DNA from: Longimicrobiales bacterium
GTDB taxonomy: Bacteria; Gemmatimonadota; Gemmatimonadetes; Longimicrobiales; Gaopeijiaceae
Direction: 5' to 3'
DNA: 64,000 bases
NCBI GenBank assembly: GCA_951828585.1
Contig: OX639991.1
Span: 310,001 to 374,000 of the forward strand
The notes under the pieces are model-generated. The model worked only from the letters and a program-made list of their open reading frames with translations. It was not told where the DNA came from and did not search any database. Within the stretch, counting starts at the first letter, position 1. The number at the start of each line of letters is the position of its first letter. Positions 7,796 through 36,847 of this stretch are shown piece by piece. Position numbers and translations under genes: made by a program.

Positions 7796-8929
7796 TCAGG
7801 CGGCTTTCCGCCCCGCTTCGTGGTCCGGCGCGCAATCCTGCATCAGCGCCCAGATGAACCCGGCCAGCTCCCGCGCCACTGCCACCGCCGCGATCTTGTT
7901 GTTCTTCCGAAATGCCAGCCGCTTGTACACCTTGTGAAGCCGGTGCTGCGCCTTCCAGCTGTGCGCGACGGCATCCGGTGGCTGGCCCTGCTGACGACGC
8001 TTGAGCACCGCGCTCAGCCGAGGCGGGAAGCGGTAGTTCCACGCCGCTTGGACCAACACATGACGCACCCGGCTGTTGCCCGCCTTCGTGATCGAGCCCT
8101 GCCGTCGGCTTCCTCCACTCGAATGTTCCGTCGGCACCAGGCCGACGTAGGCCATCAGCTTGCCCGGATGCTCGAAGCGCCGGAAGTCCCCGATCTCCGT
8201 CACGAGCACCATTGCCGCATGGGTCGAGATTCCCTTGAGGCAGCACAAGCGGCCGATCGCTTCCTTGTAGGGCGGCTCCAGCGCCAGAGCCTCGATCTGC
8301 CGGTCCAGCTCCTCGCGGCGGCCCAGCTTGTAGTCCAGCAGCGCCAGATACTCGCCGAAGGCCACCTGGTCCTCCACCTCCAGCACCCCGTCGCGCTGAA
8401 TCGCCCGCAGCCAGGCGAAGTGCTTCACCGTCCAGTTCCGGCCCTCGCGGTACACCAGATCCCGCCGCGCCAGGAACTTCAGGATGTAGTGGCGCGACTG
8501 CAGAGCCTCTCTCTGTAACGTCTCCCGGCAGCGCACCAAGTCTCGCACCCGCTCCTCACGCTCCGCCGGCACCCGGATCGTCACCAGTTCCCCCGCCCGG
8601 TACAGCCTCGCCAGATCCTCGGCATCCTTGCGGTCGTGCTTGCGGCGCTCCCCCGGCCGCCTCGGAATCAGCGACGGGGCCACGATCTCGCATTCGTGGC
8701 CCCAGCTCCGGATCTTCCGCTCCAGCACATAGCCCGCGCCGCTCGCCTCGTAGCACGCGCGAACCTCGTGCTCCCGGGCCAAGCGGTCCAGCAACCGCCT
8801 GATCCCCCGCGGATCGTGCGACAGCCGCTTCACCAGCGTCGGCTCCCGCGCTCCCTCCGGCAGCACTGCAATCATCACACTGTCCTTGTGGACATCCATC
8901 CCGACGTACACCTTGGTCCCGTTCTTCAT
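7796..8929 (-). CDS. IS110-family transposase
   Basis: A 377-residue IS110/IS1111 transposase. The N-terminal RuvC-like DEDD domain shows YVGMDVHKDS, a central YEASGAG and HDRKDAEDLA; the C-terminal Tnp_20 half has LKGISTHAAMVLVTEIGDF and KLMAYVGLVPTEHSSG...ITKAGNSRVRHVLVQAAW, including the conserved serine region. I start it at ATG 8929, with AGGAGA upstream, rather than the in-frame ATG at 8971. The protein catalyses RNA-guided recombination of its element. It looks intact. It differs from the 340-residue IS110 copies further right (34995, 38514), so it is a separate family member. Confidence 0.92.
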   Translation of the reverse strand: MKNGTKVYVGMDVHKDSVMIAVLPEGAREPTLVKRLSHDPRGIRRLLDRLAREHEVRACYEASGAGYVLERKIRSWGHECEIVAPSLIPRRPGERRKHDRKDAEDLARLYRAGELVTIRVPAEREERVRDLVRCRETLQREALQSRHYILKFLARRDLVYREGRNWTVKHFAWLRAIQRDGVLEVEDQVAFGEYLALLDYKLGRREELDRQIEALALEPPYKEAIGRLCCLKGISTHAAMVLVTEIGDFRRFEHPGKLMAYVGLVPTEHSSGGSRRQGSITKAGNSRVRHVLVQAAWNYRFPPRLSAVLKRRQQGQPPDAVAHSWKAQHRLHKVYKRLAFRKNNKIAAVAVARELAGFIWALMQDCAPDHEAGRKAA

Positions 8930-9044
8930 AGGGCCGGTCTCCTGTTCCGGTTGCGACCTCAAGCGTCGCATGTGGCTCTGGCACCTCCGCTCACCGGGGC
9001 GCTAACCCACGGTAAGCCGGCAGGGGCCGGCCCTTCCATATTTT

Positions 9045-18256: not shown

Positions 18257-19473
18257 GCGGCGTCGATCGCGCGGGATCCGGGACGGTCGTGGCGCGGCGG
18301 CCCCAAACCGTTGCCGACCCGGGGTTGTCCGGTCCCGGCGATGCGCGGATCACGATCCTCGTCGATTCGGCGGCCTTCCGGGAGGCGCTCCGCACCGACC
18401 TGGCCGAGGCTCGCCACTACGCATACGTCCAGACCTACTCTTTCGAGGGAGACGCGGTGGGGGAAGCCCTCACAACCGAATTTCTCTCCTCGAAGGCCTC
18501 CGACCGCAAGCTGCTCATCGACTCCTACACCCGCATCAACCAGAGCGATCAGTGGATTCCGGCGCCCGGTTTTCTTTTCAACCGGGAGTTGCGCGAGGAG
18601 GTGCGGAACACCCGGCGCCTGGTCGCCTCCCTCCGTTCCGACGGAGTCGGCGTCCGCTACGGCCGCCCCTTCGGCTTCCTGGGACACAGGATCCTGCGGC
18701 GCGACCACAAGAAACTCATCCTCTTCGACGACCGTGTCGCCTACGTGGGCGGCATCAACTTCTCCGAGCACAACTTCGATTGGCACGACTTCATGGTGCG
18801 CATCGAGGATCGCAAGGTGGCCCGCTTCCTCAGGAAGGACTTCCTTTCCTCGTGGGAGGGACGGTCCGAAAGATCCTCGCAGCGGTTCACGGGATTGGGA
18901 CTGGATCTGCACGCATTGCCGGGCAGGGGAAACCGCGAGGCCTTCGGTGGTCTCGTGGATCGCATCGAGGGGGCCGAGCGTTCGATCCAGGTGATCAGTC
19001 CCTATTTGGGGCCACCCTTTACGCGGCATCTGGCGGCCGCGGTGAATCGGGGCGTGAAGGTGCAGGTCGTCAATCCACTCGAGAACAACCTCGGCTACCT
19101 TCAGAGGTATCTGTTCGCGGAAGCGGCGCGCTTCGGCTTCGAGCTACACCTCTATGAGGACCGCATGATCCACATGAAGAGCATGCTGATCGACGACAGC
19201 GTGCTCGTCACCGGCTCTTCCAACTTCGACCTGCTGAGCTACCACGGATTCCTGGCAGAGGTCGTCGCGGTCATCCGTTCGCCCTCCGTCATCGATGCCT
19301 TCCGGCGGCGGGTGCTGGAGCCGGCGCTCGCGGGATCGCGGCACTTTGAACCGGGGGGCGTGCGCGGGTCCGGTCCAATGTCACGATTGTGGATCACCGC
19401 GGCGATGGGCGGGGCCAACCTGCTTGCCCGGGCACTCAACCCACCCGTGAAGCGAGAACCGCGTGGCCGTTGA
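18253..19473 (+). CDS. Phospholipase D-family protein (cardiolipin synthase-like)
   Basis: A 406-residue protein with two HKD motifs: DHKKLILFDDRVAYVGGIN (near residue 150) and IHMKSMLIDDSVLVTGSSNF (near residue 306). These form the paired active site of PLD-type phosphatidyltransferases. It lacks the N-terminal membrane helices of classical ClsA, resembling ClsB-like enzymes. Translation is coupled to the upstream VTT gene (overlap GTGA at 18253-18256) and its stop overlaps the next gene start at 19463. Probably makes or remodels anionic phospholipid at the inner membrane. Confidence 0.85.
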   Translation: MSGVDRAGSGTVVARRPQTVADPGLSGPGDARITILVDSAAFREALRTDLAEARHYAYVQTYSFEGDAVGEALTTEFLSSKASDRKLLIDSYTRINQSDQWIPAPGFLFNRELREEVRNTRRLVASLRSDGVGVRYGRPFGFLGHRILRRDHKKLILFDDRVAYVGGINFSEHNFDWHDFMVRIEDRKVARFLRKDFLSSWEGRSERSSQRFTGLGLDLHALPGRGNREAFGGLVDRIEGAERSIQVISPYLGPPFTRHLAAAVNRGVKVQVVNPLENNLGYLQRYLFAEAARFGFELHLYEDRMIHMKSMLIDDSVLVTGSSNFDLLSYHGFLAEVVAVIRSPSVIDAFRRRVLEPALAGSRHFEPGGVRGSGPMSRLWITAAMGGANLLARALNPPVKREPRGR

Positions 19474-21013
19474 GCGCCATGCCAGCTCACGGGGCCGCAC
19501 CATCGGCCTCTGGCTGGGGCTGACCGCTTTCCTCCTCCTGATGATCTTCCCGGTCGACCCCGGGAACGAGTCGGCCAGCCGCCTCGCCGCGGTCGCGCTG
19601 CTGATGGCGATATGGTGGGTCACCGATGCGATCCCGCTCTTCGCCACCGCGCTGCTCCCGCTGGTCCTCTACCCGCTGCTGGGCATCATGGCGGGGCGCG
19701 AAACCGCGCCGATCTACTTCAACAGCACGATCGTGCTCTTTCTCGGCGGGTTCATGATCGCGCTGACCATGGAGAAGTGGAACCTGCACCGCCGCATCGC
19801 GCTGAACATCATTCACGCGGTGGGGGGCGGGCCGGCGCGCATCGTGCTGGGGTTCATGGTCGCGGCCGCCTTCCTCTCGATGTGGATCTCGAACACCGCA
19901 ACCGCGGTGATGATGGTCCCGATCGGGCTCGCCATCGTGCTGCAGATCGAGGGCGAGGCCGGGAAGGAAGCCGCGCGCCACTTCTCGGTGGGACTCATGC
20001 TTGGGATCGCCTACGGGTGCACGGTCGGGGGACTGACCACCCTGGTGGGCACGCCGCCCAACCTCTCCTTCGTCCGCATCTTCGAGATCCTCTTCCCCGA
20101 CGCGCCGTCCATCGCCTTCGGGCAGTGGCTCATCATGGCATTGCCGGTGGGGGCGATCATGCTGGTGGCGGCCTGGTTCATGATTACGCACGTCTTCCAC
20201 CGGGCGCCGGAGGGGCTTGCCGTCGACCAGGAGGTGGTCGCCACGGAGCGCGCGCAACTGGGCGCCGTGTCGTTCGAGGAACGGGCGGTGCTGGGGGTCT
20301 TCGCGGCCACCGCGCTGCTGTGGGTCTTCCGCGTGGACCTGCAACTGGGGTTCCTCACGCTGCCGGGGTGGTCGCGCCTGCTTCCCAACCCGGGCATGAT
20401 CGACGACGGCACGGTGGCGATCACCCTCGCCTCGATCCTCTTCCTCATCCCCACGCGCAACCGTGAACAGGGCTTCACCCGCGTCATGGGGCCGGATGTG
20501 ATCCCCCGCCTGCCCTGGAACATCGTGCTGCTCTTCGGCGGCGGCTTCTCGCTGGCGGCTGGCTTCCAGGAAACCGGACTGGCGCAGATCATCGGCAGCC
20601 AGTTCGAGGCGTTCGGGAACCTGCCCGTCTTCGTGATGATCCTGCTGGTGTGCGTGGCCCTCACCTTCCTCACCGAATTCACCAGCAACACCGCCACCAC
20701 CGAGATGATCCTGCCGATCCTGGCCTCGGTGGCGGTGGTGACCGGGACGCACCCGCTGGTGCTCATGATTCCCGCCACGCTGTCGGCCTCGTGCGCCTTC
20801 ATGATGCCGGTGGCCACGCCGCCCAACGCGATCGTCTTCGGCAGCGACCGGATCACGGTGGGACAGATGGCGCGCACGGGCATCTTCCTGAACCTGCTTG
20901 GGGTCGTGGTGATCGCGACGGTGGTGTTTACGGTGGGGTTGGCGGTCTTCGACATCGATCCTTCGGTGGTGCCGGAGTGGGCGCGGTCGATCTCGGGGGG
21001 GGCGCTGGAGTAG
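19463..21013 (+). CDS. SLC13/DASS-family sodium:anion symporter
   Basis: A 516-residue membrane protein with about eleven helices. The two SNT signature loops are present: WISNTATAVMMVPIG (near residue 143) and FTSNTATTEMILPIL (near residue 407), with the following TPPNL and ATPPNAIVFG loops that bind Na+ and the carboxylate in VcINDY-type transporters. The likely substrate is a di- or tricarboxylate; sulfate is possible. GTG 19463 starts within the PLD gene, so the three genes 17795-21013 probably form one unit, though the link between lipid genes and this transporter is not obvious. Confidence 0.9.
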   Translation: MAVERHASSRGRTIGLWLGLTAFLLLMIFPVDPGNESASRLAAVALLMAIWWVTDAIPLFATALLPLVLYPLLGIMAGRETAPIYFNSTIVLFLGGFMIALTMEKWNLHRRIALNIIHAVGGGPARIVLGFMVAAAFLSMWISNTATAVMMVPIGLAIVLQIEGEAGKEAARHFSVGLMLGIAYGCTVGGLTTLVGTPPNLSFVRIFEILFPDAPSIAFGQWLIMALPVGAIMLVAAWFMITHVFHRAPEGLAVDQEVVATERAQLGAVSFEERAVLGVFAATALLWVFRVDLQLGFLTLPGWSRLLPNPGMIDDGTVAITLASILFLIPTRNREQGFTRVMGPDVIPRLPWNIVLLFGGGFSLAAGFQETGLAQIIGSQFEAFGNLPVFVMILLVCVALTFLTEFTSNTATTEMILPILASVAVVTGTHPLVLMIPATLSASCAFMMPVATPPNAIVFGSDRITVGQMARTGIFLNLLGVVVIATVVFTVGLAVFDIDPSVVPEWARSISGGALE

Positions 21014-21214: not shown

Positions 21215-23725
21215 ATGACAGCGAGCATGTCAACCGGGGACCCGCAAGTCCACCGACACCGCCGGGAAGCGGGGCCTGCCAGAGTCCTTTGCGGCGAAAC
21301 AGCCGCGACAGCCGCAATGCTGCTGCTCTGCGCCGCCTGCGGGCGCGACCTCGACCTGCTCGAGCCGGCACCCTTTCCCGCCGATCCGGAGGTCTTCTAC
21401 GACGACTTCGGGCCGGGGGTTCAGTACGCCGCCTTTGCCGGTTCCATGGTGGACGCGCTCGACATCGAGTACGAGGAGGTCTACCGGGGTACGGCCGCGC
21501 TCAAGTTCACCGTCCCTTCGACGGACGATCCGTCGGGCGGGTTCGCCGGCGGAGCCTTCTTTTCCACGACTCCCCGCGATCTCACCGGCTTCGACGCACT
21601 CACCTTCTGGGCCAAGGCCACCACTGCCGCCCCCCTGAACACCGTGGGGATCGGCAACGACAACACCGGTACCTCCCGCTACCCGATCACCATGGATGGC
21701 CTCCCGCTGTCGACCCGCTGGACCAAGTACGCCGTCCCCATTCCCCTGCCCTCCAAGCTGTCGCAGGAGCGGGGCCTCTTCCAGCTCGCCGACGCCACCG
21801 AGTTCGACGTGGGCTACACGATCTATCTCGATGACGTGCAGTTCGAGCGGCTGGGGACCATCGTCAATCCGCGGCCGGCCATCAACACGGAGACGGTGTA
21901 CGGCGAGGTCGGCGGCACGCTGGTGATCCGTGGCACGCAGGTGACCTTCGACGTGAACGGCGAGGACCGGACCGTCTTTGCCTCTCCCCACTACTTCACC
22001 TTCACCTCGTCGGACAACAGCGTGGCTTCGGTGGGTCCCACCGGCGAAATCACGCTCGTGGGCACCGGCACCGCCACGGTCACCGCGGCGCTGGGGTCCA
22101 CCCAGGCGAGCGGATCCGTAACCGTGGTTGCGACCGAACCGCCGCGGGAGGCGCCGCCCACCCCGACGGTTCCCGCCGAGGATGTGATCTCGCTCTTCAG
22201 CGACGCCTACAACGACGTTCAGGTGGACACCTGGTCGGCGGAGTGGGACGTGGCCGATGTCGCCGACGTTCAGGTCGCGGGTAACACGGCCAAGAAGTAC
22301 ACCAACCTTTCCTTCGCGGGCGTCGAATTCACGTCGCAGCCCATCGACGCGCGGGGAATGACCCATCTGCACATCGACCTCTGGACGAACGATCCGTCCG
22401 CCTTCCGGATCAAGCTCGTGGACTTCGGGGCCGACGGGGTCTTCGGCGGCGACGACGACAGCGAGCACGAGGTCACGCTCGACCCGGGCTCGACACCTCC
22501 GATCGAAGCCGGAAGATGGAACGTCCTGGACATTCCGCTCTCCGCCTTCAACCGGCTCGCCGGCCGGAGTCACCTGGCCCAGATGATCATCTCGGGGGCG
22601 AGTCCCACGGTCTACCTGGACAACGTCTTCTTCTTCACGAACCGGCTCACCGGGCCCGAGGTGCCCGCCCCGACGCCCACGCACCCGCCCGCCAGCGTCG
22701 TTTCGCTCTACAGCGACGCCTACGCGGACGTCGCGGTCGACACCTGGTCGGCGGAGTGGGACCAGGCCGATGTGGAGGATGTGGAGATCGCGGGCGACGC
22801 GGTGAAGAAGTACACGAACCTGGTCTTCGCGGGAATCGAGTTCACGTCGGAGACGGTGGACGCGACCGGCATGAACCATTTCGGGATGCACATCTGGACC
22901 CCGGACGAGACCGCGGCGGCGGCGTTCAAGGTGAAGCTGGTCGACTTCGGCGCGGACGGCGCATTCGGAGGCGGCGACGACAGCGAACACGAAGTCACGA
23001 TCACGGCCGGAGAGGGGCTGGCCACTGCATCGTGGGTGCGCCTCGACCTGCCCCTGTCGGACTTCACCGGTCTTGCGGCACGCGGCAGCCTGGCCCAGCT
23101 GATCATCTCGGGCGACCCGAACACCGTGTTCGTCGACAACGTGTACTTCTTCTCGGCAAACCCGACCGCCCCGACCCGGCCCGCACCAACCCCGACCGAC
23201 GCCGCGGCCGACGTGATTTCGCTCTTCAGCGACGCGTACACGGACGTCGGCGTCGACACCTGGTCGGCGGAGTGGGACGTGGCCGACGTGGAGGACATCG
23301 CCGTCGCGGGTGACGCGGTGAAGAAGTACACCAACCTCGCCTTCGCGGGCATCGAATTCACGTCGTCGACGCTGAACGCCGCGGAAATGACGCACTTCCG
23401 GATGGACATCTGGACACCGGACGAGACGGCGGCGGCGGCGTTCAAGGTCAAGCTCGTGGACTTCGGCGCGAACGGCGTCTACGACGGGGGCGGCGACGAC
23501 AGCGAGCACGAGGTGACGATCACGGCCGCCGAAGGGCTGGCCACGGGAGCGTGGGTGCGCCTGGACCTGCCCCTTGCCGACTTCACGGGACTCGCCGCGA
23601 CCGAACACCTTGCGCAGATGATCATCTCGGGGGATCCGAACACGGTGTATGTGGACAACGTCTACTTCCGGCGACCCGCGTCCGCGGCCCCATCCATGCA
23701 AACCATCGACTCCAGCAACCAGTAA
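21215..23725 (+). CDS. Multi-module carbohydrate-binding lipoprotein (three CBM-like repeats)
   Basis: About 836 residues. The leader ends in a lipobox-like LLLCAAC, so it is probably a lipoprotein. Next comes a jelly-roll-type domain (YDDFGPGVQYAAFAGS ... YTIYLDDVQFERLG), then a Big_2-like Ig domain (SSDNSVASVGPTGEITLVGT), then three ~155-residue modules at about 22160-22650, 22680-23150 and 23190-23670. Each runs from VISLFSDAY through VDTWSAEWD, KKYTNL, GVEFTS or GIEFTS, WTPDE or WTNDP, KLVDFGADG, DDSEHE to LAQMIISG and VDNVYF. Such modules occur in laminarin-utilisation proteins of marine Bacteroidota, so beta-glucan binding is likely. Start 21215 is chosen near GGATGGAAGG; 21227 is possible. 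First gene of the operon. Confidence 0.8.
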   Translation: MTASMSTGDPQVHRHRREAGPARVLCGETAATAAMLLLCAACGRDLDLLEPAPFPADPEVFYDDFGPGVQYAAFAGSMVDALDIEYEEVYRGTAALKFTVPSTDDPSGGFAGGAFFSTTPRDLTGFDALTFWAKATTAAPLNTVGIGNDNTGTSRYPITMDGLPLSTRWTKYAVPIPLPSKLSQERGLFQLADATEFDVGYTIYLDDVQFERLGTIVNPRPAINTETVYGEVGGTLVIRGTQVTFDVNGEDRTVFASPHYFTFTSSDNSVASVGPTGEITLVGTGTATVTAALGSTQASGSVTVVATEPPREAPPTPTVPAEDVISLFSDAYNDVQVDTWSAEWDVADVADVQVAGNTAKKYTNLSFAGVEFTSQPIDARGMTHLHIDLWTNDPSAFRIKLVDFGADGVFGGDDDSEHEVTLDPGSTPPIEAGRWNVLDIPLSAFNRLAGRSHLAQMIISGASPTVYLDNVFFFTNRLTGPEVPAPTPTHPPASVVSLYSDAYADVAVDTWSAEWDQADVEDVEIAGDAVKKYTNLVFAGIEFTSETVDATGMNHFGMHIWTPDETAAAAFKVKLVDFGADGAFGGGDDSEHEVTITAGEGLATASWVRLDLPLSDFTGLAARGSLAQLIISGDPNTVFVDNVYFFSANPTAPTRPAPTPTDAAADVISLFSDAYTDVGVDTWSAEWDVADVEDIAVAGDAVKKYTNLAFAGIEFTSSTLNAAEMTHFRMDIWTPDETAAAAFKVKLVDFGANGVYDGGGDDSEHEVTITAAEGLATGAWVRLDLPLADFTGLAATEHLAQMIISGDPNTVYVDNVYFRRPASAAPSMQTIDSSNQ
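22160..23670 (+). repeat. Three tandem ~500-bp carbohydrate-binding module repeats
   Basis: Three copies of the same coding module (starts near 22160, 22680, 23190), separated by Pro/Thr-rich linkers such as PAPTPTD. Conserved DNA blocks such as ACCTGGTCGGCGGAGTGGGA recur, showing duplication within the gene. Confidence 0.85.
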
Positions 23726-23743: not shown

Positions 23744-26512
23744 ATGAATTCGCGAAGCCATCGTTCACTTCCCGTCCGGCGGTCACCGGGATCTCGCAAT
23801 CGCCGCCTCTCGTTCCCGCGATCCTTGCCCGCCGCGTCCGCTGCTCTCGTTACGTGTGCGTTGCTGGCGTGTGGTGGTGATGACCCGATGCCCCCGGAAC
23901 CGGACCCCGTGGCCACGACGGTCGAGGTGACGCCCGCGACGTCCACTCTTTCGGCCCTGGGCGAAACTGTTCAGCTGACCGCCACCGTCAGCGACCAGAA
24001 CGGCAATGTCATGTCGGGTGCGTCCGTCACCTGGTCCTCGGGGGACGTGTCGGTTGCAACGGTCAGCGCTACCGGTCTCGTCACCGCGGCGGGCAACGGC
24101 ACGGCGACGATCACCGCGACGTCCGGCAACGCGAGCGGCACCGCAACGGTTATGGTGGAGCAGGCAGCCGCCGCCATCACGGTTGCGCCCGACTCGGTGC
24201 TCCTGACCGAACTCGGGGAGACGGCGCAGCTCACGGCCGAGGTGACGGACGCGAACGGGAATGTGATCGCGAACGCTACTGTGAGCTGGTCCTCGGGGGA
24301 CGAGGCGGTCGCGACGGTCGACGCGACAGGACTGGTCACCGCGGTGGCCAACGGTTCGACAACGGTCACGGCGACAGCTGGCGACCACAGCGCGAGCGCA
24401 ACCGTGACGGTCATGGCCCAGTCCGCACCGACCGAGGGACCACCGACGCCCACCCACGCGGCCGAAGACGTGATCTCGCTCTTCAGCGGCGCCTATGACG
24501 ACGTGACGGTCGACACCTGGTCGGCGGATTGGGACCAGGCCGACGTGGAGGACGTGGACATCGCGGGCGACTCGGCCAAGAAGTACACCAACCTGGTCTT
24601 CGCGGGGATCGAGTTCACTTCCGAGACCGTGGACGCCACGAACATGACGCACCTGCGAATGGATATCTGGACACCCGACGAGACGACGATGGCGGCGTTC
24701 AGGGTGAAGCTCGTGGACTTCGGAGCGGACGGCGTCTTCGGCGGCGACGACGACACCGAGCACGAGGTCACGATTACGGCCGCCGAGGGGCTGGCCACGG
24801 AAGCGTGGGTGCAGCTGGACCTGGAACTGACGGACTTCACCAACCTCACGACGCAGGAACACCTCGCGCAGCTGATCATCTCCGGCGATCCGAACACGAT
24901 GTACGTGGACAACGTGTACCTGCGGGAAGGCGAACGGCCCGATGCGCCGACCGAGCCGGCGCCAACGCCCGCCGACTCGGCGAACCAGGTGATCTCGCTC
25001 TTCAGCGACGCCTACGACGATGTGACGGTGGACACCTGGTCGGCGGAGTGGGACGTTGCGAACCTGGAGGACGTGGAGATCGCGGGTGACGCGGTGAAGA
25101 AGTACACCGGTCTGTCGTTTGCGGGGATCGAGTTCACGTCGCAGACCGTGGACGCGGCCAACATGACGCATTTCCGGATGGACATCTGGACGCCCGACGA
25201 GACGATCGACGCGGCGTTCAAGGTGAAGCTGGTGGACTTTGGCCCCAACGGCGTATGGGACGGGGGCGGCGACGACAGCGAGCACGAGGTCACGATCACG
25301 GCCGCGGACGGGCTGGCAACCGGAGACTGGGTGCAGCTGGACCTGGCGCTTGCGGACTTCACGAACCTCACGGCGCAGGAACACCTCGCGCAGCTGATCA
25401 TCTCGGGTGATCCGAACACGGTCTACGTGGACAACGTCTACTTCCGGGGCAGCGACGCGCCCCCGCCGCCGGATGCGCCGACTGACGCCGCGCCGACGCC
25501 GGAGCACGCCGCGGATCAGGTTACCTCGCTCTTCAGCGGGGCCTACACGGACGCGACCGTGGACACCTGGTCGGCGTCGTGGGACCAGGCCGATGTGGAG
25601 GACGTGGTGATCGCGGGCGACACGGTGAAGAAGTACACGAACCTCGTCTTCGCGGGGATCGAGTTCACCTCGGCAACGATCGACGCCAGCGCCGCCACGC
25701 ACTTCCACTTCGATCTGTGGACCCCCGATCCCACGGCGGATCCGGCGGCGTTCAGGGTCAAGCTGGTGGACTTCGGAGCCGACGGCGCCTTCGGCGGAGG
25801 CGACGACACGGAGCACGAGGTCGGGCTGACCGCCAACTCGGATCCCGCCCTGGCTACCGCCCGGTGGGTCAGCTACGACCTGGCGCTGGCGGACCTCACG
25901 AACCTCACGGCCCGGGAACACCTCGCCCAGCTGATCATCTCCGGCGATCCCAACACGGTGTTCCTGGACAACATCTACTTCTACGAGGCACTCACCGAGC
26001 CGAGCGAAGCGGCACCGACCCCGACGGACTCGGCCAGCAAAGTGATCTCGTTCTTCAGCGACGCGTACACCGACGTGTCGGTCGACACCTGGTCCGCCGA
26101 CTGGGACCAGGCCGACGTGGAGGACGTGCAGATCTCGGAGAACGCCACCAAGAGGTACACCAACCTGGTCTTCGCCGGCATCGAGTTCACCTCGGCGACG
26201 GTGGACGCGACGGAGATGACCCACTTCCGCTTCGACTTCTGGACCCCGGACCCCACGGCCGACCCGGCGGCGTTCCGCGTCAAGCTGGTGGACTTCGGAG
26301 CCGACGGCGCCTTCGGGGGAGGCGACGACAGCGAGCACGAGATCACACTGACGGCGGCCTCCGACCCGCCACTCGCCTCGGGTGCGTGGGTGAGTTTCGA
26401 CGTCGCACTCTCGGACTTCACAAACCTCACGGCGAGGGAGCACCTGGCACAACTGATCATTTCCGGCGATCCCAACACGGTGTTCCTGGACAACGTGTAC
26501 CTGCGCAAGTAG
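23744..26512 (+). CDS. Multi-module carbohydrate-binding lipoprotein (two Big_2 domains, four CBM-like repeats)
   Basis: 922 residues. The signal peptide ends in lipobox ALLACGG (Cys43). Two Ig-like Big_2 domains follow (VEVTPATSTLSALGETVQLT... and ITVAPDSVLLTELGETAQLT...), which probably act as spacers lifting the binding modules from the membrane. Four copies of the ~155-residue module lie at about 24450-24925, 24965-25450, 25490-25980 and 26010-26510, joined by Pro/Thr linkers. The module core matches those of the upstream gene (WSAEWD/WSADWD, KKYTNL, GIEFTS, KLVDFGADG, AQLIISGDPNTV). It starts 18 bases after the previous stop with GGAGAGAATCC upstream. The tandem array suggests avidity for a long polysaccharide on the outer membrane or in the periplasm. 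Confidence 0.82.
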   Translation: MNSRSHRSLPVRRSPGSRNRRLSFPRSLPAASAALVTCALLACGGDDPMPPEPDPVATTVEVTPATSTLSALGETVQLTATVSDQNGNVMSGASVTWSSGDVSVATVSATGLVTAAGNGTATITATSGNASGTATVMVEQAAAAITVAPDSVLLTELGETAQLTAEVTDANGNVIANATVSWSSGDEAVATVDATGLVTAVANGSTTVTATAGDHSASATVTVMAQSAPTEGPPTPTHAAEDVISLFSGAYDDVTVDTWSADWDQADVEDVDIAGDSAKKYTNLVFAGIEFTSETVDATNMTHLRMDIWTPDETTMAAFRVKLVDFGADGVFGGDDDTEHEVTITAAEGLATEAWVQLDLELTDFTNLTTQEHLAQLIISGDPNTMYVDNVYLREGERPDAPTEPAPTPADSANQVISLFSDAYDDVTVDTWSAEWDVANLEDVEIAGDAVKKYTGLSFAGIEFTSQTVDAANMTHFRMDIWTPDETIDAAFKVKLVDFGPNGVWDGGGDDSEHEVTITAADGLATGDWVQLDLALADFTNLTAQEHLAQLIISGDPNTVYVDNVYFRGSDAPPPPDAPTDAAPTPEHAADQVTSLFSGAYTDATVDTWSASWDQADVEDVVIAGDTVKKYTNLVFAGIEFTSATIDASAATHFHFDLWTPDPTADPAAFRVKLVDFGADGAFGGGDDTEHEVGLTANSDPALATARWVSYDLALADLTNLTAREHLAQLIISGDPNTVFLDNIYFYEALTEPSEAAPTPTDSASKVISFFSDAYTDVSVDTWSADWDQADVEDVQISENATKRYTNLVFAGIEFTSATVDATEMTHFRFDFWTPDPTADPAAFRVKLVDFGADGAFGGGDDSEHEITLTAASDPPLASGAWVSFDVALSDFTNLTAREHLAQLIISGDPNTVFLDNVYLRK
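24450..26510 (+). repeat. Four tandem ~490-bp carbohydrate-binding module repeats
   Basis: Module starts near 24450, 24965, 25490 and 26010. The last two share extra residues (TPDPTADPAAF) absent from the first two, so the array probably grew by unequal duplication of neighbouring copies. Confidence 0.85.
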
Positions 26513-26562: not shown

Positions 26563-27798
26563 ATGACGACTGCGTGGCGGGCCAAGCAGTCCCGGCCGGG
26601 TGCGGCCCGGGAGGGGGGACTGATTACTGAGGTCCTCGAGTTCGTGTGGCGGCGGAAAACGGTCTCCCGGGCCGAGATCGCGCGTCACACGGGGCGCTCC
26701 CGGTCGACCATCTCCGCGGTGGTCGGGCGGCTCCTGCCGACCGGGTTGATCGAGGAGGTGGGGAGCGGGGAGAGCCGAGGGGGACGGCGGCCCATCCTCA
26801 TGCAGTTTCGGGACCGCGCCAGCGTGATCCTCGGGGTGGACATCGGTGCTGCGCATGTCTCGGTCGCGCTGACCGACCTGCGCGGCCGCACCCTCGAGTG
26901 GCGCGAGGAGGACCATCCGGTTCAGAGCGACCCGCAGGGCACCGCCGACCTCGCGGTGAGGCTGGGCAAAGCGTGCCTCGCCACACGCGGCAACGGCGTG
27001 CCCGCGCCCATGGGGATCGGCGTGGCGGTCCCGAGTCCGGTCGACCCCGGGTCGCCGTACCGGATTCTGGAGCGCATCCTGCCTGCCTGGCACTCCTTCG
27101 ACCTGCTCGGAGTGCTGCGCGACCACTTCGAGGTACCGGTCTTCGTCGACAACGACGCCAACCTGGGCGCGCTCGCGGAGCACCACTGGGGTCAGGCGGT
27201 GGGGATCGACGACTTCGCGTATCTCAAGGTGGCGACCGGGATCGGCGCTGGGCTGATGATCGACGGAGAGATCTACCGCGGCGCCACCGGCGTAGCGGGC
27301 GAGATCGGCCATGTGGCCATCGACCCACGCGGACCCGAGTGCGTCTGCGGCAATCGCGGCTGCCTGGCGACCTTCGTTGGAACCGCGCCGCTGTTGTCAC
27401 GGATTCAGGCCCTGCTCCCCGATTATCCGCAGAGCGTCCTGAACGGCACGGTAGCCGACATCCGGGCCCTCGAGGACGCCGCGCTAGCCGACGACCCGCT
27501 CGCGCTCATGGTGGTGGACGAGGCCGCGCGCAACCTGGGCATCGTGATCGCGGCTGTCCTGAACCTCATGAACCCGGGCTCGGTCATCCTGGGCGGCAGT
27601 CTGGCCCGGCTCGGAGAGCGCCTGCTCGTCCCGCTGAGCGAGGCGGTGGCCAGCCGGACGTTGGTCGCGTCGGCGGCGGCCTCTGAAGTCCGCACCAGCG
27701 AACTTGGTCCCCGGGCCACCGCATTGGGGGCCGCCACGCACGTGCTTGCCGCCGCCCTGGCCGATCCGAGTCTCTTTCCGGGCGTACGAGCATCGTGA
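26563..27798 (+). CDS. ROK-family transcriptional regulator
   Basis: 411 residues. A winged helix-turn-helix occupies residues ~18-75 (TVSRAEIARHTGRSRSTISA). The ROK sugar-kinase-like domain follows, with VDIGAAHVSVALTDLRG (phosphate loop), VFVDNDANLGALAEHHWG, KVATGIGAGLMIDG and the zinc motif GHVAIDPRGPECVCGNRGC (residues ~248-266). Members of this NagC/XylR/Mlc group repress sugar genes until a sugar binds. It lies mid-operon, between the binding lipoproteins and the hydrolase, and its stop overlaps the GTG of the GH16 gene. It is the natural candidate for the palindrome at 21120-21142. Confidence 0.9.
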   Translation: MTTAWRAKQSRPGAAREGGLITEVLEFVWRRKTVSRAEIARHTGRSRSTISAVVGRLLPTGLIEEVGSGESRGGRRPILMQFRDRASVILGVDIGAAHVSVALTDLRGRTLEWREEDHPVQSDPQGTADLAVRLGKACLATRGNGVPAPMGIGVAVPSPVDPGSPYRILERILPAWHSFDLLGVLRDHFEVPVFVDNDANLGALAEHHWGQAVGIDDFAYLKVATGIGAGLMIDGEIYRGATGVAGEIGHVAIDPRGPECVCGNRGCLATFVGTAPLLSRIQALLPDYPQSVLNGTVADIRALEDAALADDPLALMVVDEAARNLGIVIAAVLNLMNPGSVILGGSLARLGERLLVPLSEAVASRTLVASAAASEVRTSELGPRATALGAATHVLAAALADPSLFPGVRAS

Positions 27799-28613: not shown

Positions 28614-30683
28614 GTGACCCACCGGACCGCCCCCCAGGACCGCATCTCCTTCCCGCACAAGGTCGTCTACGGGATCGGCGGCTTCGTGAACAACCTTCTG
28701 GCGCAGGGCATCGGCAACATGATGGCCGTGCTGACCCTGGCGCTGGGCATGGACTTCCGGGCCGTGGGCCTGCTGGGAAGCCTGCCCCGCTTCTTCGACG
28801 CGCTGACCGATCCGCTCGTCGGCTTCGTGTCGGACAAGACGAAGTCGCGGTGGGGACGGCGGCGGCCGTTCCTCTTCGTGGGCGCGATCGCGGCGGGGAT
28901 CATCTTCGCGCTGCTCTGGCAGATGCCGGCGCCGACGCAGCTGCGGCTCAAGCTGGTCGACTACGGGGCCGACGGCGTCTACAGCGGCGAGGAAACCGGC
29001 GAGCCGGCCGGGTTGGTGGAGGGTTTGGGGGAATCGCTGAAGGGGATCGTGACGGTCGACGCGATCGACGATGTCGAGGACGAAGTCGCCATCCGTCCCC
29101 CGACGCTGTTCACTGGCGGCTGGGCAAGCGTGGACGTGCCGCTCGGCGACTTCGAGGGACTCTCCACCCGGGAGCACCTGGCGCAGATCCTCATTTCGGG
29201 TGACCTGACCGAGGTCTATGTCGACAACGTCTATCTCTACCGAAGCGACGACACGAGCCCGGCGGAGCCTTCCGGACAGGACGCCGAGGGACTCGACGCG
29301 CCCACCACCGCCGCACCGACGCCCACCGTCCCCCCCGAGGACGTCATCTCGCTCTTCAGCGGCGCCTACGAAAACGTCCCCATCCAATCCTGGTCCACCG
29401 ACTGGGACGAGGCCGAGGTGGGGGACGCCGAGGCCGGCGGGGACGAAGTCAAGCACTACACCGACCTCCGCTTCGCCGCGATCGACTTCGGCGAAACACC
29501 CGTCGACGCCCGCGGGATGACGCACGTCCACCTGGACATCTGGACCCCGGAGCCCACCGGCGAAGGCTGGAGCCAGAGCGCGTACTTCTGGTACTTCCTG
29601 ATCGGCTCGCTCGTCTTCTTCCTCGCCTACACCGTCTTCGCGACGCCGTGGGTGGCGCTCGGATACGAACTCACTCCCGACTACAACGAGCGCACCCGCC
29701 TGATGGGCGTGCAGAACTTCGTGTCGAACACCGTGTTTGTGATCGGCCCCTGGTTCCTCGTGATCGTGACCAACGCGGCCTGGTTCCGAAACCAGATGGA
29801 CGGGGCCCGGTTCCTCGCGCTGGCGATCTGCGTGACGACCATCGCGCTGGGCGTGCTGCCCGCGATCTTCCTGCGCGAGCGCGTGCTCAAGGGCCGTGGT
29901 GCGGAGGACGCAGAGGCGGACGGCCCCACCTTCGGCGAGAGCACGATCGAGTTCCTCCGCGGTCTCTGGCAGACCCTGAAGACCGGTCCCTTCCTGGTGC
30001 TCTGCGTCGCGACCTTCCTGATGTTCAACAGCTTCATCATGATCTCGCAGTTCCAGTTCTGGGTGTTCGCCTACTACGTCGCCGGCGGCAACGTGGCCGA
30101 AGGGGCGGGCCTGGCCGGCGTAGTCGGGACGCTGGGGACCGTCACCGGTTTTCTGGTGATCGCCATCGTGACCTGGCTGGGGACCCGGATCGGAAAGAAG
30201 AACGCCTTCTTCGTCTCGACGAGCATCTCGATGGTGGGCTATGCGCTGAAGTGGTTCTGCTACACCCCCGAAGCGCCCATGCTGGCGCTCCTCCCCGCCC
30301 CGTTCCTCGCCTTCGGCCTGGGCGGGCTGTTCACGCTAATGGGATCGATGATCGCGGACGTGGTCGACCTGGACGAACTCCATACCGGCGAGCGGCGCGA
30401 AGGAATGTTCGGATCGGTCTTCTGGTGGATGGTGAAGCTCGGCCAGAGCGGCGCGATCCTGGTCGGCGGGTTCCTGCTGTTCTCGACAGGGCTGGATCCG
30501 GCGCTGGGCGCGAACCAGCCGGAGGGGACGATCTTCTGGCTGCGCATTTATGATGCGTTCGTACCGCTGGTGGCGTCGGCGATCGCGATCTATGCGGTGT
30601 ATCTGTATCCGATCACGGAGGAGAGCGCGGGGGAGGTTAGGGCGGAGTTGGAGAGGCGGCGGGGGGTGGGGGTGGTGGGGTAG
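28614..30683 (+). CDS. GPH/MFS sugar:cation symporter with an inserted carbohydrate-binding module
   Basis: 689 residues, about 210 more than typical glycoside-pentoside-hexuronide symporters (MelB-like). The N-terminal helices and motif A (GFVSDKTKSRWGRRRPFLF, cytoplasmic TM2-TM3 loop) are normal. After TM3 (AIAAGIIFALLWQMP) the frame enters a binding-module sequence (residues ~107-317) and then resumes with TM4 (YFWYFLIGSLVFFLAYTVFATPWVALGYELT) and a normal C-terminal half (YDLDELHTGERREGMF-like loop at VVDLDELHTGERREGMFGS). The TM3-TM4 loop of MFS proteins faces the periplasm, so the module would sit at the transporter mouth. GTG 28614 lies three bases after the GH16 stop. It probably imports beta-gluco-oligosaccharides or glucose with Na+ or H+. 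Confidence 0.87.
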   Translation: MTHRTAPQDRISFPHKVVYGIGGFVNNLLAQGIGNMMAVLTLALGMDFRAVGLLGSLPRFFDALTDPLVGFVSDKTKSRWGRRRPFLFVGAIAAGIIFALLWQMPAPTQLRLKLVDYGADGVYSGEETGEPAGLVEGLGESLKGIVTVDAIDDVEDEVAIRPPTLFTGGWASVDVPLGDFEGLSTREHLAQILISGDLTEVYVDNVYLYRSDDTSPAEPSGQDAEGLDAPTTAAPTPTVPPEDVISLFSGAYENVPIQSWSTDWDEAEVGDAEAGGDEVKHYTDLRFAAIDFGETPVDARGMTHVHLDIWTPEPTGEGWSQSAYFWYFLIGSLVFFLAYTVFATPWVALGYELTPDYNERTRLMGVQNFVSNTVFVIGPWFLVIVTNAAWFRNQMDGARFLALAICVTTIALGVLPAIFLRERVLKGRGAEDAEADGPTFGESTIEFLRGLWQTLKTGPFLVLCVATFLMFNSFIMISQFQFWVFAYYVAGGNVAEGAGLAGVVGTLGTVTGFLVIAIVTWLGTRIGKKNAFFVSTSISMVGYALKWFCYTPEAPMLALLPAPFLAFGLGGLFTLMGSMIADVVDLDELHTGERREGMFGSVFWWMVKLGQSGAILVGGFLLFSTGLDPALGANQPEGTIFWLRIYDAFVPLVASAIAIYAVYLYPITEESAGEVRAELERRRGVGVVG
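28932..29565 (+). other. In-frame module insertion, circularly permuted, inside the symporter
   Basis: The insert begins in the middle of the module (LRLKLVDYGADGVYSG ... STREHLAQILISGDLTEVYV, the C-terminal half), passes a Pro/Thr linker (PTTAAPTPTVPPEDV), then gives the N-terminal half (ISLFSGAYENV ... QSWSTDWDEAE ... MTHVHLDIWTPEPT). That equals one repeat period cut from a tandem array in shifted phase. The two halves can together make one fold, and the ends meet the membrane at the loop between WTP and KLVD. Confidence 0.8.
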
Positions 30684-34994: not shown

Positions 34995-35753
34995 TCAGGC
35001 GGCAGCGCGGATCCGGTAGGTCTCCCCTCTCGTGCTCAGCGCCCAGACCACCCGCGCCGTTCTGTTGGCGAGCGCCACCGCGACCACCTTCTTCGGCTTG
35101 CGCGCCAGCATCCCGGCCAGCCACGGATCCGCGGTCTCGCCGCGCCGGGCCGCGTGCCGAATAACCGACATGGCTCCCGTGACCAGGAGCCGCCTCAGAT
35201 CTTGCTGGCCCATCTTCGATATCCTGCCGAGCCGCGGCTTGCCGCCGGTCGTGTGCTGCCGAGGTACGAGGCCCAGCCAGGCCGAGAAGTCGCGCCCGCG
35301 CCGGAAGCTCTCCATCGGCGGTGCGAAAGCCTGCAGTGCCATCGCGGTGACCGGCCCTACTCCTGGGATCGTCATCAGCCGCGCCGTCTCTTCGTTCTCC
35401 CGGGCGCTCGTCTGGAGCTCGCGGTCGAGCCGGTTGACTTTCTCATCGAGCTCATCGATCCGTCCGAGCAGCAGCCGGCCCAGTTCCACGACCGCCTCCG
35501 GCAGGCCACAGTCCCCGTCTTCCAGCACTCCGACCAACTCCCTGATCCGGGCTCTGCCCTGCGGAGCAACCACGCCGTACTCGGCCAGGTGACCCCGAAG
35601 CGCATTGATCGTCTGCGTGCGCTGGCGCACCAGCAGGTCACGCGTGCGACAGAGCATCCCCTGCGCCTGCTGTGCCTCGGTCTTGACCGCCACGAAATGC
35701 ATGGTCGGACGCTGCGCCGCCTCCGTGATCGCCTCCGCGTCCGCCGCATCGTT
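34995..35753 (-). pseudogene. IS110 transposase, C-terminal part (separated by RIT insertion)
   Basis: 252 codons from NDAADAEAITEAAQRPTMHF to the stop, containing RLMTIPGVGPVTAMALQAFA and FSAWLGLVPRQHTTGGKPRL, the C-terminal IS110 domain. Its first 88 codons lie 7.6 kb away at 43408-43671. Joined at the duplicated CTTGTG they restore a 340-residue protein like that at 38514. The frame runs back into the RIT end, but that part is not transposase. Confidence 0.9.
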
Positions 35754-35759
35754 CTTGTG

Positions 35760-35834
35760 ATATGTTGCGGCCCGGATTATGTGGCGGAGCGCCCGGACGT
35801 CCCGTGGAAGCATGAGAAGTCTCCGTGTCTCCGC
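35760..35834. repeat. RIT left terminal inverted repeat (75 bp)
   Basis: Starts ATATGTTGCGGCCCGG and ends GTGTCTCCGC; exact reverse complement of 43305-43379. Confidence 0.92.
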
Positions 35835-35851
35835 AACATAATCTCCTTCAC

Positions 35852-36847
35852 TCAGAGTGCAGCCAGGAAGGCCATCAGCCCCTTGTTGGCCTTCCACGGG
35901 CGATCCGGCCCGGGCCCGGCGGCATCGCAGAGCGCCATTGCCTTTGCCTTCATCTCCATGTCGATCTCGGCGTAGATGTTGGTGGTATCGAGGCTGGCGT
36001 GACCGAGCCAGGCGCGGATCGTGTTCAGGTCGACTCCGGCCTGGAGAAGGTGGCAGGCACTCGTGTGGCGGATCGTGTGAGGCGTGATCCTTCTTCCGGC
36101 GAGCGATGGGGCGCGGGCCGCACAGCGCTCGACGAGGCGGTAGACCCCGAACCGCGTGTAGGGCCTTTGCAGCCGGCTGAGGAATACGGCATCGCCGGCT
36201 GCCCGTCCCTGCACGAGGTTGTTGAGCACGGATTCGGTTCGCGGCCACAGCGGACACTGTCGTTGTTTTCCGCCCTTGCCATGGATGTTGACAAGCGCGT
36301 GTCCGCCGTCGCGCCGTCCGGTCTGCAGGTCTCCGGCCACGAGTCTCGTAGCTTCGGAGGCGCGCGCCCCGGTGTTGTAGAGGAACAGGAGGAGTGCGTG
36401 TTCGATCCGGCCTCTCGGCGTCCGCCGGTCCGGGACATCGAGCAGATCGTTCACCTGGGTCTTGCCGAGCCAGCCGATCGGCTGCGGTGTCGCCTTCTTC
36501 GAGGCAATGGCGCGGATGCCGGCGCTCCACTCGATGTGTACGGGATCACGGCTGGCAACGAAGCGCGCGAAGGAGCGGATCGCCGACAGCCGCTGGTTGC
36601 GGGTCTGCACGGAACAGGCGCGGTCACTTTCGAGATGGTCGAGGAACTGCCGCACGCGCCGGGCCGTAAGATCGTGCAGCGCGAGCCGGTCGACCGGCTT
36701 GCGGGTCCTGGCGCGGACGAACGGGAGAAGGAGGGCGAAGGTGTCGCGGTAGCTCTTCTGGGTGTTGCGGGCGAGGTTGCGCTCGGTGACGATGTGCTCG
36801 GCCAGGAAGCGGCGGAGCCAGGGGCCGAGGGTGCTTGGATTACTCAT
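35852..36847 (-). CDS. ritC: Tyrosine recombinase RitC
   Basis: 331 residues. N-terminal SAM-like DNA-binding domain (NLARNTQKSYRDTFALLLPF) and catalytic domain with Arg in YNTGARASEATRL, HTIRHTSACHLLQ (His-x-x-Arg), WLGHASLDTTNIYAE (His/Trp and the Tyr nucleophile). It is the third recombinase of the RIT trio; in RITs the three genes normally overlap, but here an IS21 composite separates ritC from ritB. ATG 36847 is followed normally, yet its native ribosome site upstream may be lost to the insertion. Looks catalytically intact. Confidence 0.85.
   Translation of the reverse strand: MSNPSTLGPWLRRFLAEHIVTERNLARNTQKSYRDTFALLLPFVRARTRKPVDRLALHDLTARRVRQFLDHLESDRACSVQTRNQRLSAIRSFARFVASRDPVHIEWSAGIRAIASKKATPQPIGWLGKTQVNDLLDVPDRRTPRGRIEHALLLFLYNTGARASEATRLVAGDLQTGRRDGGHALVNIHGKGGKQRQCPLWPRTESVLNNLVQGRAAGDAVFLSRLQRPYTRFGVYRLVERCAARAPSLAGRRITPHTIRHTSACHLLQAGVDLNTIRAWLGHASLDTTNIYAEIDMEMKAKAMALCDAAGPGPDRPWKANKGLMAFLAAL

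What the first reader, a model, noticed from the sequence alone, without database searches (positions are those of the whole stretch)
28932..29565. Sugar symporter with a circularly permuted glycan-binding module in its periplasmic TM3-TM4 loop
Sequence: the GPH-type symporter is split after TM3 (LLWQMP) by about 210 residues that are homologous, half by half, to the tandem modules of the two upstream lipoproteins, but in the order C-half, linker, N-half. This is one array period in shifted phase, so both module edges meet the membrane at a loop between WTP and KLVD. Known: motif A marks the TM2-TM3 loop as cytoplasmic, so the next loop is periplasmic. Inference: the transporter has a built-in substrate-capture domain derived from its own operon. 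I know of no described MFS sugar transporter of this design.
Basis: partly seen in the sequence, partly recalled or inferred. Interest (0 to 1): 0.9.

Follow-up and report, generated by a model that had tools for sequence, protein, structure and literature searches.

The report
Sugar transporter with built-in permuted CBM-like domain
An ion-driven sugar importer of uncultured marine bacteria carries, in one of its outward-facing loops, a whole carbohydrate-binding-type domain copied in circularly permuted form from neighbouring genes, apparently giving the transporter its own built-in receptor, an arrangement I could not find described.

Summary
The 689-aa GPH symporter (28614-30683) is interrupted by residues 106-317. 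These match, in swapped order, one period of the modules in the two upstream proteins (106-210 on module 89-170; 229-316 on module 2-89). It is not an assembly chimera: 20 other Gemmatimonadota genomes (17 of the window's family, one of them fragmentary, and three Palauibacter) carry the insert at the same site. Empty-site orthologues sit in the same module-ROK-GH16-GPH operon in related families. The insert-bearing transporters form one clade (100/99), hence one gain, and the insert is under purifying selection (omega about 0.32). AlphaFold gives an intact MelB/MFSD2A-like fold plus an all-beta insert whose module strands run 5-9 then 1-4. The free module resembles CBM30/CBM11. Charge pattern and MelB topology put the insert in the periplasm. 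Most likely it is a tethered receptor for beta-glucan oligosaccharides at the transporter mouth; that function is inferred, and docking of the operon's glucanase or lipoproteins is the main rival. All inserts also gained a segment of about 25 residues, usually an amphipathic helix, absent from free modules. MFS ectodomains (PepT, SV2) and CBM-bearing transporters (Wzt) are known; this combination was not found in the literature searched.

The parts
28614..30683 (+). GPH-family (MFS_2) cation:sugar symporter with insert, 689 aa
   Evidence: PF13347 E 2.3e-59 in two blocks; model matches MFSD2A and MelB
28863..28916 (+). TM3 (residues 84-101), directly before the insert
   Evidence: AlphaFold helix 84-101
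28929..29564 (+). Insert, residues 106-317: one circularly permuted CBM30/CBM11-like module
28929..29243 (+). C-half of module (module strands 5-9), residues 106-210
   Evidence: blastp to module 89-170, 42% id
28974..29078 (+). Region holding the extra segment of about 25 residues found only in inserts (residues 121-155), with predicted helix 134-145; low pLDDT
29244..29297 (+). Former inter-module linker, now internal (residues 211-228), low confidence, variable length
29298..29564 (+). N-half of module (module strands 1-4), residues 229-317
   Evidence: blastp to module 2-89, 52% id
29574..29672 (+). TM4 (residues 321-353), directly after the insert; helix IV lines the sugar cavity in MelB
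   Evidence: MelB paper PMC8329300
27795..28610 (+). GH16 enzyme, closest solved relatives beta-1,3-glucanases and laminarinases; lipobox-like N-terminus
   Evidence: PF00722; 3atg 3e-78, laminarinase 3azx 3e-71
26590..27798 (+). ROK-family regulator (start uncertain)
   Evidence: PF00480 8e-53
23744..26512 (+). Putative lipoprotein: two Big_2 domains and four modules
21215..23725 (+). Putative lipoprotein: N-terminal region and three modules (start uncertain)

Best explanation
It is a GPH (MelB/MFSD2A-fold) cation symporter whose periplasmic TM3-TM4 loop holds one complete CBM30/CBM11-like beta-sandwich module. The module is circularly permuted, most simply because a stretch running from the second half of one module to the first half of the next was copied from the operon's module array into the loop. 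Shown: architecture, homology, permutation at the strand 4-5 loop, a single old gain, purifying selection. Shown indirectly (charge pattern, fold family): periplasmic side. Inferred: the GH16 enzyme cuts beta-1,3-glucan, the array proteins hold the glycan, and the module tethered beside helix IV binds released oligosaccharides and raises their concentration at the symporter's outward-open vestibule, doing for a secondary transporter what a solute-binding domain does for an ABC importer. The extra helix may dock the module on the membrane or the transporter.
For: PF13347 intact around the insert. Permutation and homology. AlphaFold insert strands in order 5-9, 1-4 of the free module, flanked by TM3 and TM4. 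Module fold closest to CBM30 and CBM11, including CBM11 complexes with beta-1,3-1,4-glucan; a related module protein passes Pfam's CBM30 cut-off. One clade, one gain. Insert omega median 0.32 against 0.21 for the membrane part. Most module-invariant residues kept. Insert 9 K+R, 44 D+E; other outer loops 0-1 K+R, inner loops 2-6. Conserved operon with a beta-1,3-glucanase-like GH16 in filled and empty loci.
Against: No binding or transport data. The invariant D-T (module 31-32) is lost in all inserts and H115 in most, so the ancestral ligand site may be altered. Insert evolves somewhat faster than the membrane part. Empty-site orthologues work in the same operon without it, so it is not essential to the pathway. 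Placement relative to the vestibule was not measured.
Confidence: 0.5

Rival explanations
1. Docking platform: the insert binds another protein of the operon (GH16 or the array lipoproteins, perhaps module to module) and holds hydrolysis next to uptake, rather than binding sugar itself.
For: Precedent: PepT1/PepT2 ectodomains bind trypsin and can be removed without appreciable loss of transport (PMC4597091). Insert is strongly acidic, homologous to neighbours in the operon, and always found with them. Part of the module's conserved surface (D31, T32) has changed.
Against: Fold is that of carbohydrate-binding modules and the conserved Trp and acidic residues are mostly kept. No sign of module-module contact was tested.
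Confidence: 0.25
2. Gate or sensor: the domain caps the vestibule or couples periplasmic sugar to the conformational state of the symporter through helix IV.
For: Fused directly to TM3 and TM4 by short junctions; helix IV contacts sugar in MelB (PMC8329300); a new conserved helix could contact the transporter.
Against: Insert relation to the membrane domain is unknown; the extra helix has low pLDDT.
Confidence: 0.15
3. Tolerated passenger without a specific function.
For: Loops of membrane proteins tolerate insertions; empty orthologues exist.
Against: Never lost in the clade seen here, open and under purifying selection over about 20 species and at least one transfer to another family.
Confidence: 0.08
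4. Assembly chimera.
For: None found.
Against: Insert at the same site in 20 further genomes from separate assemblies, one of chromosome level.
Confidence: 0.01

Closest known systems
GPH symporters (MelB, PF13347/TIGR00792) and the related MFSD2A
   Same: Same fold and family; cation-coupling segment and motif A region aligned
   Different: No known member has a folded domain in the TM3-TM4 loop
CBM30 / CBM11 carbohydrate-binding modules
   Same: Fold of the free module; one related protein passes the Pfam CBM30 cut-off
   Different: Remote (TM about 0.6, 12-16% identity); circularly permuted here and placed inside a transporter
PepT1/PepT2 ectodomain and SV2 luminal domain (MFS)
   Same: Folded beta domain inserted into an outward-facing MFS loop
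   Different: Other loop, other fold, other MFS family, animal proteins; PepT domain recruits a protease
Wzt carbohydrate-binding domain of O-antigen ABC exporters
   Same: Carbohydrate-binding domain built into a transporter protein
   Different: ABC exporter, cytoplasmic, C-terminal, recognises polymer caps
Fused solute-binding domains of ABC importers; LacS with C-terminal IIA domain (from memory)
   Same: Receptor tethered to the transporter (former); GPH symporter with an extra domain (latter)
   Different: Other transporter class, or a cytoplasmic regulatory domain at the C-terminus

Membership tests
GPH symporter family (PF13347) | Pfam MFS_2 profile over its cut-off | tested here: met
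   201.5 bits against cut-off 27
GPH symporter family (PF13347) | NCBIfam TIGR00792 (gph) over its cut-off | tested here: not met
   153 bits, E 9.8e-45, cut-off 231; the insert splits the match, but GPH-like remains the safest wording at subfamily level
GPH symporter family (PF13347) | MelB-like 12-helix MFS fold | tested here: met
   Foldseek MFSD2A TMt 0.85, MelB 0.74
GPH symporter family (PF13347) | Cation-coupled sugar transport | not testable with these tools
   needs transport assays
Carbohydrate-binding module (CBM30/CBM11-like) | Beta-sandwich fold similar to CBM30/CBM11 | tested here: met
   Free module: 2c24, 1v0a, TM about 0.62, E about 1e-5
Carbohydrate-binding module (CBM30/CBM11-like) | Sequence profile match above curated cut-off | tested here: inconclusive
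   CBM30 37.3 bits over cut-off 27 for one related module protein; window proteins and the aligned modules do not reach it
Carbohydrate-binding module (CBM30/CBM11-like) | Binds carbohydrate | not testable with these tools
   needs binding assays
Circular permutation of the operon module | Both halves present once, in swapped order, cut within one loop, old termini joined by a linker | tested here: met

The most novel reading that the evidence does not exclude
A secondary (ion-driven) sugar symporter that acquired its own covalently tethered glycan receptor, made from its operon's glycan-binding array by a shifted-phase copy, so that the two domain edges meet the membrane as a ready-made loop. 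As far as I know it would be the first solute-binding-domain-like function built into an MFS symporter.
Probability: 0.42. Interest if true: 0.8.

Novelty: new variant of a known kind. Interest (0 to 1): 0.66.

Why it matters
Ion-driven symporters are thought to take substrate directly from solution, while binding-protein help is typical of ABC, TRAP and tripartite systems. A symporter with a tethered glycan module would blur that line. It also shows how a tandem array can seed a domain insertion: any one-period fragment of an array has neighbouring ends, so a shifted-phase copy is a circular permutant that fits into a loop. Empty and filled orthologues in the same operon make both ideas directly testable.

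Tried and rejected
Chimera or frameshift: rejected by homologues. Half-domains that pair with other proteins: disfavoured, all module strands are present in one insert. Recent copy within this genome: rejected, identity to the local modules is only about 40-55% and the inserts form their own clade, so the donor module cannot be named. Solved homologue of the module by sequence: none. Relative in IMG/VR viral contigs: none. A 2024 paper on laminarin-binding CBMs that I recalled is not held, so whether this module already has a CBM number is open. Literature searches for MFS or GPH transporters with CBM-type inserts gave nothing relevant. Viral structure library: only ordinary MFS proteins among good matches.

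Full report
OBSERVATION. The window lies at 310001-374000 of a single-contig 4.47 Mb genome. The ORF 28614-30683 encodes 689 residues. PF13347 (MFS_2, the GPH family) covers it in two blocks, profile 2-90 before and 90-427 after residues 106-317, so no transporter sequence is missing. blastp of the protein against one canonical module from the upstream protein gives two hits in swapped order, 106-210 on module 89-170 and 229-316 on module 2-89. Against the array itself, residues 110-315 align in one piece across a module border. Shuffled inserts never exceed 26 bits against 155 observed.

REALITY. Insert-bearing transporters are found in named assemblies L005-L019 and, in the whole-genome set, in the window's family in genera g1, g4, g5 and g14 and in three Palauibacter genomes of another family: 21 genomes counting this one, with one fragmentary case (G026). 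The typical junctions are LLWQMPAPTQ and DIWTPEPTGEGWSQSAYFWYF. Orthologues at 56-62% identity have an empty site, such as LLWQLPEGKTESFYFWYF. Both kinds sit in the same gene order: module protein(s), ROK regulator, GH16, GPH. In genus g1, every genome in which the orthologous transporter was found complete has the insert; the others lack the transporter altogether. A Melioribacteraceae locus (L020) has ROK-GH16-GPH with an empty site and a module protein nearby, so the operon type appears older than the insert.

ORIGIN. On a tree of the transporter without insert columns, insert-bearing sequences are one clade (100/99) and one change suffices. The root is set by one long-branched outgroup, but MelB, MFSD2A and all other GPHs seen lack the insert, so gain is the sensible direction. 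De-permuted inserts also form one clade apart from 37 modules, with the same deepest forks as the transporter tree. This indicates one gain followed by common descent; the nesting of the Palauibacter copies inside the g1 clade suggests a later transfer of the operon. The donor module cannot be identified. A fragment running from mid-module to the next mid-module explains the permutation without any separate step (inference).

SELECTION. Median omega over 197 pairs is 0.32 for the insert, 0.26 for its C-half, 0.33 for its N-half and 0.21 for the membrane part. The pairs are not independent, but the values do not suggest free drift. Most near-invariant module positions persist, while D31-T32 are replaced in all inserts.

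STRUCTURE. AlphaFold with 31 aligned sequences gives pLDDT 80.8 and pTM 0.80. Helices TM3 84-101 and TM4 321-353 flank beta strands 110-116, 157-160, 171-176, 189-196, 200-209, then 244-248, 268-274, 277-283, 287-291, 304-310. The free module (pLDDT 95.2) has strands 17-21, 39-47, 50-64, 77-83, 92-99, 113-120, 131-136, 149-156, 161-169. So the insert runs 5-9 then 1-4, with the long third strand split in two, and the new ends lie in the loop between strands 4 and 5. The whole model matches MFSD2A and MelB. The module matches CBM30 and CBM11 best; two of the CBM11 entries are complexes with beta-1,3-1,4-glucan. A related module protein passes Pfam's CBM30 cut-off. Insert placement relative to the membrane was not measured.

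TOPOLOGY. MelB has both termini in the cytoplasm and its sugar pocket opens to a periplasmic vestibule lined among others by helix IV (PMC8329300), so the TM3-TM4 loop is periplasmic. The charge pattern agrees: inner loops and termini 2-6 K+R, other outer loops 0-1, the insert 9 K+R and 44 D+E; the maximum 19-residue hydropathy in the insert is 0.9.

A NEW PIECE. Between strands 5 and 6 the inserts have about 25 more residues than the free modules, with a predicted helix in this protein, for example LVEGLGESLKGIVT. The segment is more amphipathic than 95% of its shuffles in 14 of 21 sequences, though pLDDT is low. A docking helix for the transporter or membrane surface is the natural guess.

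FUNCTION. The GH16 is closest to beta-1,3-glucanases and laminarinases, which makes beta-1,3-glucan oligosaccharides the likely cargo. The best account is a tethered receptor that presents oligosaccharide to the symporter (0.5). Recruitment of the hydrolase or lipoproteins, as PepT ectodomains recruit trypsin (PMC4597091), is the main rival (0.25). Nothing here measures binding or transport.

NOVELTY. Ectodomains in MFS proteins (SV2 papers) and carbohydrate-binding domains on transporters (Wzt, PMC9445017) are both known. No description of a GPH or other sugar MFS protein with such an insert was found in the open-access library, which does not prove absence. I rate it a new variant of a known kind, of high interest for transport biology and domain evolution.

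Noticed in passing
L020:9453-10856: Melioribacteraceae (Ignavibacteriota) protein with modules of the same family, near a ROK-GH16-GPH cluster with an empty insertion site; the module family extends beyond Gemmatimonadota.
   Followed up: partly
L009, L010, L015 (G178, G121, G129): Only 3 of 17 Palauibacter-genus genomes carry the insert-bearing transporter, nested in the clade of the window's genus: probable horizontal transfer of the whole operon.
   Followed up: partly
G016 and G017 (L008/L014; L016/L007): Two distinct insert-bearing transporters within one MAG each (recent paralogues or strain mixture).
   Followed up: no
L019:7998-10059: Reading frame of the insert-bearing transporter is broken near its C-terminal half (647-aa and 231-aa frames), a frameshift or assembly error.
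   Followed up: no
window 19463-21013: DASS-type transporter (Na_sulph_symp) gene just upstream of the operon is kept next to it in many insert-bearing loci (L005-L007, L011-L014, L017, L018).
   Followed up: no
window 21362-22135: N-terminal region of the first module protein, by its look a further beta-sandwich-type domain unlike the modules; no Pfam name.
   Followed up: no
window 34995-36847 and 7796-8971: By their look, transposase frames (IS110-like) and a tyrosine recombinase frame on the minus strand; not checked against a family library.
   Followed up: no
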